Assembly: GCF_002087085.1 (NCBI RefSeq)
Contig: NZ_MWQY01000008.1
Location: forward strand, 124,001 to 188,000
Origin: Marispirochaeta aestuarii
GTDB taxonomy: Bacteria; Spirochaetota; Spirochaetia; JC444; Marispirochaetaceae
DNA: 64,000 bases
Reading direction: 5' to 3'
The translations under genes were made by a program, and so were the position numbers. The notes under the pieces were generated by a model. It was not told the origin of the DNA, did not search any database, and was given only the letters and a program-made list of their open reading frames with translations. Numbering within the stretch: the first letter of the stretch is position 1; the number at the start of each line of letters is the position of its first letter. This document shows positions 14,489 through 16,620 of this stretch, one piece after another.

Positions 14489-15022
14489 TCAAGTTTTCTG
14501 GAATGAAAATGAAAAGGAATGGCCCGGCCGGGGATTCAACAGGGGCCGCCGGTTGTCCGGAAGAATGGTATCCCGCTTTCTTACAGCCCGTTGAAACCAG
14601 GCCCGCACCAGGGCGGCATCTTCGCGCCACAAGTAGAGGTCGGCGAATCCGCTGCGTAAATTATCTGCCAGACGGGGCGGAATAATGTCCCGCTTGACCA
14701 GGGAAGGGCTTCCGGCGGAACAGGTGGGAAGAAGCACACCGAAAAGACCTGTGTGCAGGTAGCGATCTGTTTTCATCAGGGAGGCAAAGATCTCCCGGTC
14801 GACCTGATCGGATGCAGCCGTCTGGGGACCGACCAGGACAATCGTGGCGACGGCGTTCCGGATGTGGTTATCCTTTACCTCGGCTTCCGGCAAGCCTGCG
14901 GTAATCTCGCTGCTGTCGGTACAGCGCAGGCAGTCGCTCCGAATGAGTCGCTGAAACAGCAGCGCATACTCCTGGTCGATCGGTTGGAGATAACAGATGT
15001 GAATTCTGAAGGGTGATATCAA
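14489..15022 (-). CDS. TIR-like domain protein (MTH538/DUF1863 type)
   Basis: About 177 residues. The sequence fits the TIR-like DUF1863 fold: an N-terminal strand FRIHICYL with a following acidic helix, NAVATIVLVGPQTAASDQVD followed by REI, and a C-terminal IIPPRLADNLRSGFADLY with a W-containing segment, as in ThsB-type proteins. The start taken is the TTG at 15022, because GGGGAGGAGAG lies just before it; an ATG at 15058 has no ribosome site. Such proteins act in Thoeris-type defence or signalling, but no ThsA-like partner lies nearby. The 34-bp element at 15086-15119 lies upstream. Confidence 0.7.
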   Translation of the reverse strand: MISPFRIHICYLQPIDQEYALLFQRLIRSDCLRCTDSSEITAGLPEAEVKDNHIRNAVATIVLVGPQTAASDQVDREIFASLMKTDRYLHTGLFGVLLPTCSAGSPSLVKRDIIPPRLADNLRSGFADLYLWREDAALVRAWFQRAVRKRDTILPDNRRPLLNPRPGHSFSFSFQKT

Positions 15023-15085
15023 AGCTCTCCTCCCCTGAAAACTGGTATATACACCCATTTTTCAGTCGGGAGAAGCAAATCGTCA

Positions 15086-15119
15086 ATTGGCCAGGGGGCT
15101 AATGTATGAAAAAGTAGAC
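15086..15119 (-). promoter_or_regulatory. 34-bp promoter/operator element, copy 1 (upstream of TIR-like gene)
   Basis: Matches the element at 16587-16620 at 27 of 34 positions. Conserved parts are ATTGGCC, AATGTAT and AAAAGTAGAC on the plus strand. It ends about 92 nt before the TIR-like start codon, almost the same distance as copy 2 from its gene. It is probably a binding site or promoter for a shared regulator, perhaps the adjacent LuxR-type protein. Confidence 0.6.
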
Positions 15120-15120
15120 T

Positions 15121-15975
15121 TCAAGCTTCCCCTTCGTCGTCCCAGCGGTTATGACGACAGAGATCGATAAGCGCCCAGCGGTTATCCACCCCCATCTTGT
15201 CGAAGATGGAGGCCAGGTGTGCCTTGACGGTTGAACGGGAAATCCCCAGCCGCTGGGACAGCTCGACATTGCTTCCGCCGTAGAGGATCAGAGCCCGGAG
15301 GACCCGTTTTTCCGCGGCTGTTATTCCCCGGGAATCCAGATCGAAGGGTTCAGCCTCCTTCCGGTACCCCTCCACCTCTTCGGTCAGATCAGCAAGCCTC
15401 TCCTGAAACTGCCGGGACTTGCGCTTCTGTTCCCGTTTCAGCCGCCGGATATACGCGGTCTGTCGCCTGGAGAAGGCGACATACTTTTTCAACTCATCGG
15501 CATATATAAAAAAGAGCAGAATTCCAACCAGAAGCAGGTACAGCACTGCATTGATGCCCCTGCCGATACTGTAGTCCGGATCGACAGCGGCGGAGGCCAG
15601 TATTACCGTAATAAAAATGTAGGCCAGATAGACACCGAGTTTCAGTTTGAAACCCCGTCTGAGGAGGCCATGCTTTAAAGCGATAATGAAGGAGACGGCA
15701 TAGAGTCCCAGACCGTAGACCGACTCATAATCATCAAAAACGGCGATGGTACCCACCAGAAGAGGAAGAAAGGTCTGGACCCATCTGGCAAAACCGAAAC
15801 GGAGCCGGGCGGTAAAGAGGATAAGCAGACTGAAAAGGAAGACAAGATAGACCCGGAAATACTGAAGGGCAGCGACAAAACCGGCCCCGGCGGCAATGGA
15901 AAGCAGGTTCACCGCCGCCGCCGCAAAGCCGACAGAGGCGAACAGGTAGCCTATCCGCCTCTGAACAGGACTCAT
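15121..15975 (-). CDS. Membrane-anchored LuxR-type transcriptional regulator
   Basis: A 284-residue protein. The N-terminal half has about six hydrophobic helices (to about residue 165). A charged, coiled-coil-like linker rich in K/R/E follows (about 170-210), then a C-terminal LuxR/GerE HTH (TAAEKRVLRALILYGGSN, LSQRLGISRSTVKAHLASIF). It would sense a membrane or small-molecule signal and act on DNA from the membrane. The start overlaps the stop of the upstream unknown gene by 4 nt, so the two are co-translated. The shared 34-bp element before both units is a candidate target. Confidence 0.85.
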   Translation of the reverse strand: MSPVQRRIGYLFASVGFAAAAVNLLSIAAGAGFVAALQYFRVYLVFLFSLLILFTARLRFGFARWVQTFLPLLVGTIAVFDDYESVYGLGLYAVSFIIALKHGLLRRGFKLKLGVYLAYIFITVILASAAVDPDYSIGRGINAVLYLLLVGILLFFIYADELKKYVAFSRRQTAYIRRLKREQKRKSRQFQERLADLTEEVEGYRKEAEPFDLDSRGITAAEKRVLRALILYGGSNVELSQRLGISRSTVKAHLASIFDKMGVDNRWALIDLCRHNRWDDEGEA

Positions 15976-16526
15976 ACCGACCAGAACCCCCGGATGGATT
16001 CCTCAAGGTCCATGATCTCGTCCATTTCCCGGTGAGGATGGGCAAGGATATCGCTGCGAAGCTGTTCCATGATCTCTTCGGCGTTCCAGACTCCCGCAGC
16101 TACGGGATTGTACTTCGTGTTATGCATGTCCTTGTCCATGTCACGAAGGTATCCCGCAACCATCTGCAGTTTCAAGAGGTTCATTCCCCGGGTAATAACA
16201 CCGGGGTCCCCGCCGCAGAACTGCATGATCGGCTGCAGACGGTGCTCCAGGCAGCAGTCATCCTCTTTTGTGTGAAGAAAAAACTCTTTGGTACCCTCCA
16301 GCTGGGCGAGGACGTAGATGGAGACATGCTGAATCGAGGTCTGCATGGCATGCTCGCAGCCGGCAAGAAAAGGAAGAGCCCCGATCAGTCTGGCGGTTTT
16401 TTTGGCTTCCAGCTTTCTTCTGAACTCCCTGTCCATGTTGAAGGATACGGCCGTGCGTTCCACGATCCAGTGCCAGAGGGCGGCATTGAAGTCCGTACTT
16501 TTTTTCATTGTTTCCATTGCGGTCAT
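15972..16526 (-). CDS. Conserved hypothetical protein
   Basis: Not recognised. It is 184 residues, soluble and mostly helical, with no signal peptide. It has several Cys/His residues (GCEHAMQ, DDCCLEH, QFCGGDP), so a metal or cofactor site is possible. GGAGGT precedes the ATG by 8 nt. It overlaps the LuxR-type regulator by 4 nt (ATGA), which suggests a functional pair such as a sensor partner. The 34-bp element lies about 90 nt upstream. Confidence 0.8.
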   Translation of the reverse strand: MTAMETMKKSTDFNAALWHWIVERTAVSFNMDREFRRKLEAKKTARLIGALPFLAGCEHAMQTSIQHVSIYVLAQLEGTKEFFLHTKEDDCCLEHRLQPIMQFCGGDPGVITRGMNLLKLQMVAGYLRDMDKDMHNTKYNPVAAGVWNAEEIMEQLRSDILAHPHREMDEIMDLEESIRGFWSV

Positions 16527-16586
16527 AAAAATACCTCCGTAATTTTTGTGGGCTCCTCACTATAAAACAAGCGGGTCGACGGAGGT

Positions 16587-16620
16587 ATTGGCCGCCCGGC
16601 CAATGTATACAAAAGTAGAC
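16587..16620 (-). promoter_or_regulatory. 34-bp promoter/operator element, copy 2 (upstream of hypothetical-LuxR operon)
   Basis: Second copy of the element at 15086-15119. GTAGAC lies at 16615-16620, 89 nt before the start at 16526; in copy 1 the same hexamer is 92 nt before its gene. The stretch GGCCGCCCGGCC next to it is also partly self-complementary. Confidence 0.6.

What the first reader, a model, noticed from the sequence alone, without database searches (positions are those of the whole stretch)
14489..16620. TIR-like protein and LuxR-type membrane regulator share a duplicated 34-bp promoter element
The same element (27 of 34 positions) lies about 92 nt before the TIR-like gene and about 89 nt before the operon of an unknown Cys/His-rich protein and a membrane-anchored LuxR-type regulator. 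The matching distance suggests one regulon. A TIR-like effector controlled by a membrane sensor, next to a conserved unknown partner, would be a candidate undescribed defence or stress module.
Basis: partly seen in the sequence, partly recalled or inferred. Interest (0 to 1): 0.72.

Follow-up and report, generated by a model that had tools for sequence, protein, structure and literature searches.

The report
Self-regulated spirochaete membrane-sensor operon with TIR
A DNA switch sequence really is duplicated in front of two neighbouring transcription units in a marine spirochaete; it looks like the binding site of a membrane-anchored regulator that controls its own operon, and in two species also an added TIR-type (immune-like) protein, but comparison with other genomes does not support a conserved three-gene defence module.

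Summary
The duplicated element is real: 27/34 identical, at 16587-16620(-) and 15086-15119(-), and these are the only two copies in the 4.2 Mb genome. Its core is a dyad, ATTRGCC-N4-GGCCAAT. In all three Marispirochaeta genomes this dyad occurs at the same two places: before the operon of the unknown protein (P3) and the membrane LuxR protein, and directly after the LuxR stop codon. Other spirochaete clades carry different dyads of similar size at their P3/LuxR promoters, also confined there. The best reading is that the element is the operator of the LuxR protein, which autoregulates its operon and, in two species, probably the TIR gene.

P3 belongs to an undescribed Spirochaetota family (no Pfam, NCBIfam or PDB match). 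It usually lies next to a multi-TM protein whose output is a LuxR HTH or a histidine kinase, so P3 is probably a co-component of a membrane sensor.

The TIR protein is a diverged ThsB-like TIR that keeps the catalytic glutamate and is under purifying selection. It co-occurs with P3/LuxR in only 2 of 148 relatives; the third Marispirochaeta has the second operator but no TIR gene. The regulon claim is strengthened; the conserved defence-module claim is not supported. No binding or activity was tested.

The parts
16587..16620 (-). Element copy 1, upstream of the P3-LuxR operon; core dyad ATTGGCC-GGGC-GGCCAAT at 16587-16604
15086..15119 (-). Element copy 2, between the LuxR stop and the TIR gene; core dyad ATTAGCC-CCCT-GGCCAAT at 15086-15103
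16559..16564 (-). Probable -10 box (TATAGT) of the P3-LuxR operon, 22 nt downstream of the dyad; no good -35 box, as expected if an activator overlaps -35
   Evidence: read from sequence; same spacing and box in G002
15972..16526 (-). P3: unknown 184-aa helical protein of an undescribed Spirochaetota family (conserved H85, D89, R96, GGD, D129, D133, YNP, W147)
15121..15975 (-). Membrane-anchored LuxR-type regulator: about 5-6 hydrophobic segments, coiled linker, C-terminal GerE HTH; start overlaps the P3 stop (ATGA)
14489..15022 (-). ThsB-like TIR protein, probable TTG start (alternative ATG at 15058); Glu77 aligns with the ThsB catalytic Glu85
   Evidence: PMC10022894 for E85

Best explanation
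The element is the operator of the membrane-anchored LuxR-type protein encoded between the two copies. P3 and the regulator form a translationally coupled sensor operon: the multi-TM domain, probably with P3 as a cytosolic co-component, senses a membrane or small-molecule signal; the C-terminal HTH dimer then binds the 7-4-7 dyad next to the -35 region and changes (probably activates) transcription of its own operon. In two Marispirochaeta species a ThsB-like TIR gene lies behind a second copy of the operator and so has been recruited into this otherwise self-contained regulon. Shown by comparison: conservation, confinement and placement of the dyad, the P3-membrane-domain pairing, the TIR family and its catalytic Glu. 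Inferred: that the LuxR protein is the binder, the sign of regulation, the role of P3, any NADase activity and any defence role of the TIR.
For: Element confirmed and unique to the two sites. Perfect dyads occur only at these two places in G000 and G001; in G002 the second place is perfect and the P3 site has one mismatch, with no other match at 1 mismatch. Palindrome core conserved while flanks diverge. In G025, G087 and G109 a different dyad, ATGACAC-N4-GTGTYAT, occurs twice upstream of P3 (one G109 copy degenerate), and the exact matches genome-wide are only there. In G111 and G078 the dyad TATAAC-TTTA-GTTATA lies in the divergent P3/LuxR intergenic region and nowhere else. Perfect 7-bp-arm dyads with spacers 2 and 4 are enriched before P3 genes (7 and 6 of 41, about 1 expected). 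The recognition-helix stretch STVKAHLASIFDK is identical in the three Marispirochaeta LuxR proteins and different elsewhere. P3 has the membrane-domain gene within 600 nt in 40 of 49 cases. TIR dN/dS 0.18.
Against: No binding or expression data. Only three Marispirochaeta genomes. The left 16 bp of the element is not conserved between species. Promoter boxes were read by eye, and the -10 of the TIR promoter is weak. In G001 the second operator precedes no recognised gene, so its persistence is not explained by TIR control. The 41 upstream regions are not independent (several pairs are congeneric).
Confidence: 0.68

Rival explanations
1. The two elements are not operators but repeat ends of a mobile or recombining cassette that carries P3 and LuxR: direct repeats flank the unit in all three Marispirochaeta genomes, and the unit lies at a different place in G001.
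For: Copies flank P3-LuxR in all three genomes, including G001 without a TIR gene; flanking genes differ between G001 and the window.
Against: In other clades the dyads are not flanking: two tandem copies upstream (G025, G087) or one in a divergent intergenic region (G111, G078). No recombinase gene in the unit. The first copy keeps a fixed spacing to a -10 box. P3 not found on plasmids.
Confidence: 0.1
2. A true three-gene defence or stress module: the membrane LuxR/P3 pair senses infection or envelope damage and induces the TIR, which depletes NAD+ or makes a cADPR signal.
For: ThsB-like TIR with conserved catalytic Glu (PMC10022894), kept under purifying selection, behind the same operator as the sensor operon; relatives of the TIR on viral contigs.
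Against: Three-gene co-occurrence in only 2 of 148 relatives; neighbours scanned are metabolic and regulatory genes, not defence genes; no STALD-type ThsA detected (but its control was silent) and no homologue of the partner protein that accompanies TIR relatives; VDWEI has become VDREI.
Confidence: 0.15
3. The site is bound by a different regulator, for example a general or envelope-stress factor, and the P3-LuxR pair is merely one of its targets.
For: No binding data; LuxR HTHs are not the only proteins that bind 16-18 bp dyads.
Against: Dyads are confined to the P3-LuxR locus in each clade examined and change together with the recognition helix.
Confidence: 0.1

Closest known systems
Transmembrane transcription regulators (TTRs: one-component membrane-anchored regulators such as CadC and ToxR; survey PMC10269533)
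   Same: DNA-binding domain and membrane domain in one protein; the survey reports Spirochaetota as enriched in TTRs
   Different: C-terminal LuxR/GerE HTH behind a multi-TM domain instead of the N-terminal winged HTH of CadC/ToxR (from general knowledge); accompanied by an unknown soluble protein; same membrane domain also fused to a histidine kinase
Co-component signal transduction systems (VtrA/VtrC, ToxR/ToxS; PMC9214523)
   Same: Membrane-bound regulator and an adjacent small partner in one operon, possibly one receptor
   Different: The partner here is a helical protein of an unrelated, unassigned family, predicted soluble; no periplasmic heterodimer expected
Thoeris ThsB (TIR; PDB 6lhy, 9b7d, 8wcf)
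   Same: ThsB_TIR domain above the Pfam cut-off, catalytic Glu aligned with ThsB E85
   Different: No ThsA-like neighbour seen and no STALD protein detected; VDREI motif; no PADLOC hit at E 0.01; placed behind the operator of a membrane LuxR regulator
LuxR/NarL-type operators
   Same: 16-18 bp dyad near -35, HTH of GerE type
   Different: Sequence of the dyad (ATTGGCC...) and its clade-specific change; not tested by binding

Membership tests
Transmembrane transcription regulator (one-component) | DNA-binding domain and TM segments in one polypeptide without receiver domain | tested here: met
   GerE at 219-272 and about 5-6 hydrophobic segments in the first 165 residues; no receiver domain in Pfam
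Transmembrane transcription regulator (one-component) | Acts on promoters while membrane-bound | not testable with these tools
   needs localisation and footprinting
Co-component system | Conserved adjacent partner in an operon with the membrane regulator | tested here: met
   40 of 49 P3 genes within 600 nt of the membrane-domain gene, mostly overlapping or less than 20 nt apart on the same strand; distances correlate r=0.75 (shared phylogeny not removed)
Co-component system | Partner physically forms the receptor with the regulator | not testable with these tools
   no complex prediction available
Thoeris defence system | ThsB-type TIR domain | tested here: met
   Pfam ThsB_TIR 27 bits against cut-off 21.2; PDB ThsB E about 2e-5 with the family profile
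Thoeris defence system | Catalytic glutamate of the TIR | tested here: met
   Glu77 invariant in A2 and A8 and aligned with the ThsB Glu reported as E85 (PMC10022894)
Thoeris defence system | ThsA effector (SIR2-SLOG/STALD or macro/TM) encoded with ThsB | tested here: inconclusive
   No ThsA-like gene among the neighbouring genes scanned with Pfam; STALD not found in three Marispirochaeta genomes, but the control also found none; macro-type ThsA not searched
Conserved three-gene TIR-P3-LuxR module | The three genes co-occur across genomes | tested here: not met
   P3 in 37, TIR in 4, both in 2 of 148 relatives

The most novel reading that the evidence does not exclude
P3 and its multi-TM partner are a previously undescribed Spirochaetota receptor class whose output is exchanged between DNA binding (LuxR HTH) and phosphorelay (histidine kinase), and which in Marispirochaeta has recruited a TIR effector, giving a membrane-triggered TIR response.
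Probability: 0.25. Interest if true: 0.7.

Novelty: new variant of a known kind. Interest (0 to 1): 0.45.

Why it matters
P3 is a conserved protein of no known family tied to a spirochaete membrane sensor that comes with two alternative outputs; the operator mapped here gives a direct handle to find what it senses. The TIR gene suggests how an immune-type effector may be added to an existing signalling regulon by lying behind a copy of its operator, a step that can be tested directly.

Tried and rejected
Two P3 alignments were too divergent for a genome-contig scan; a tighter one gave only five loci, which named G001 as Candidatus Marispirochaeta associata JC231. P3 against the PDB by sequence and by fold (TM at most 0.31 among the rows listed) gave nothing credible; a weak DUF5685 signal (3 of 32 members, best E 0.02) and weak terpene-synthase or ferritin folds were not trusted. 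The search for STALD is uninformative because its controls were silent. The palindrome-spacer test also shows a peak at spacer 9 that probably reflects terminators. A dif/Xer-type cassette reading was considered and set aside because dyad position follows the promoter in other clades. Literature searches for Marispirochaeta, a spirochaete LuxR-TM system or LuxR control of TIR defence found nothing describing this, in open-access text only.

Full report
What is there. On the minus strand the order is: element copy 1 (16587-16620), P3 (15972-16526), membrane LuxR protein (15121-15975, its ATG overlapping the P3 stop), element copy 2 (15086-15119), TIR-like gene (14489-15022, TTG start with a strong Shine-Dalgarno sequence; an upstream ATG lies at 15058). 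The elements agree at 27 of 34 positions. The chance of this is negligible: no shuffle matched, and shuffled upstream regions never exceeded 23 of 34. There is no third copy in the genome.

What the element is. Its right half is a dyad, ATTRGCC-N4-GGCCAAT. In the three Marispirochaeta genomes the dyad is found at the same two places each, before P3 and directly behind the LuxR stop; the other one-mismatch hits are few and no more frequent than for the control pattern. G002 is syntenic with the window and has the TIR gene; G001 (Candidatus Marispirochaeta associata JC231, named through) has another neighbourhood and no TIR gene, yet both dyads. Copy 1 ends 22 nt before a TATAGT box that is kept in G002 and has no good -35 box, a typical place for an activator.

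Other clades. G025, G087 and G109 carry ATGACAC-N4-GTGTYAT, two tandem copies before P3 (one G109 copy is degenerate); exact matches genome-wide lie only there. G111 and G078 carry TATAAC-TTTA-GTTATA in the intergenic region from which P3 and LuxR diverge, the only match in each genome. Before 41 P3 genes, perfect 7-bp-arm dyads with spacer 2 or 4 are in excess (7 and 6, about 1 expected; congeneric genomes are not independent). The Marispirochaeta LuxR proteins share one recognition helix that differs from the other clades. The simplest reading is that the LuxR protein binds the dyad and regulates its own operon. This is inferred, not shown.

The P3-membrane pair. P3 homologues are in 37 of 148 relatives and 31 of 393 Spirochaetota sampled evenly, nearly all in the same class, with one further family outside it. 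40 of 49 P3 genes or gene fragments have the membrane-domain gene within 600 nt. In most, the C-terminus is a GerE HTH; in six P3 loci (L069, L092, L115, L118, L120, L121) it is a histidine kinase, of HisKA_2/HWE type where typed. Neighbouring genes are otherwise unrelated. P3 has no Pfam or NCBIfam family, no PDB relative and a helical model of moderate confidence (pLDDT 74). That P3 stays with the membrane domain whatever the output suggests a role in sensing rather than in the response; this is inference.

The TIR gene. It matches Pfam ThsB_TIR above the cut-off. Its family profile finds ThsB in the PDB, and the model (pLDDT 75) resembles TIR domains with Foldseek probability about 0.99 but modest E-values and TM-scores of 0.4-0.5. 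Glu77 is invariant and aligns with ThsB Glu85, the catalytic residue (PMC10022894). Between the window and G002 it evolves under purifying selection (dN/dS 0.18; P3 0.03, LuxR 0.09). TIR relatives occur in G027 and G137 without P3 and on five viral contigs; in G027 and four of the viral contigs they sit next to a small partner, membrane-bound in most, of which Marispirochaeta has no homologue.

Verdict. The shared element and the single regulon stand and are strengthened. A conserved three-gene defence module does not: TIR with P3 in 2 of 148 genomes. The likely story is a widespread, self-regulated spirochaete sensor pair to whose regulon a TIR gene was added in one genus.

Noticed in passing
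L138:2908-4016, L139:1-1175, L140:2854-4034, L141:2213-3474, L089:6188-7364: ThsB-like TIR genes on viral contigs and in G027 travel with a small partner (157-238 aa, membrane-bound in most; motif WKLYVQLTTRKA...P; no Pfam or PADLOC family): a candidate undescribed TIR pair.
   Followed up: partly
15104-15119 and 16605-16620; L103 upstream of P3 and after the LuxR stop: The left part of the element differs between the window genome and G001 but is nearly identical between the two copies within each of them (not in G002), as if the copies evolve in concert.
   Followed up: partly
L103:8280-8448 (G001): The second operator persists in G001 although no TIR gene follows; a -10-like TAATCT and a terminator hairpin lie behind it, so a short RNA or a lost gene is possible.
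   Followed up: partly
L079, L081, L084: In family f26 some P3 genes stand near a hexokinase-type gene, two of them without the membrane partner.
   Followed up: no
L128 (G000:C6:193399-193416): One-mismatch dyad between a rhomboid-like gene and an rlmE-like gene; no more than expected by chance.
   Followed up: partly
L097, L098: Paralogues of the membrane LuxR protein without a P3 neighbour.
   Followed up: no
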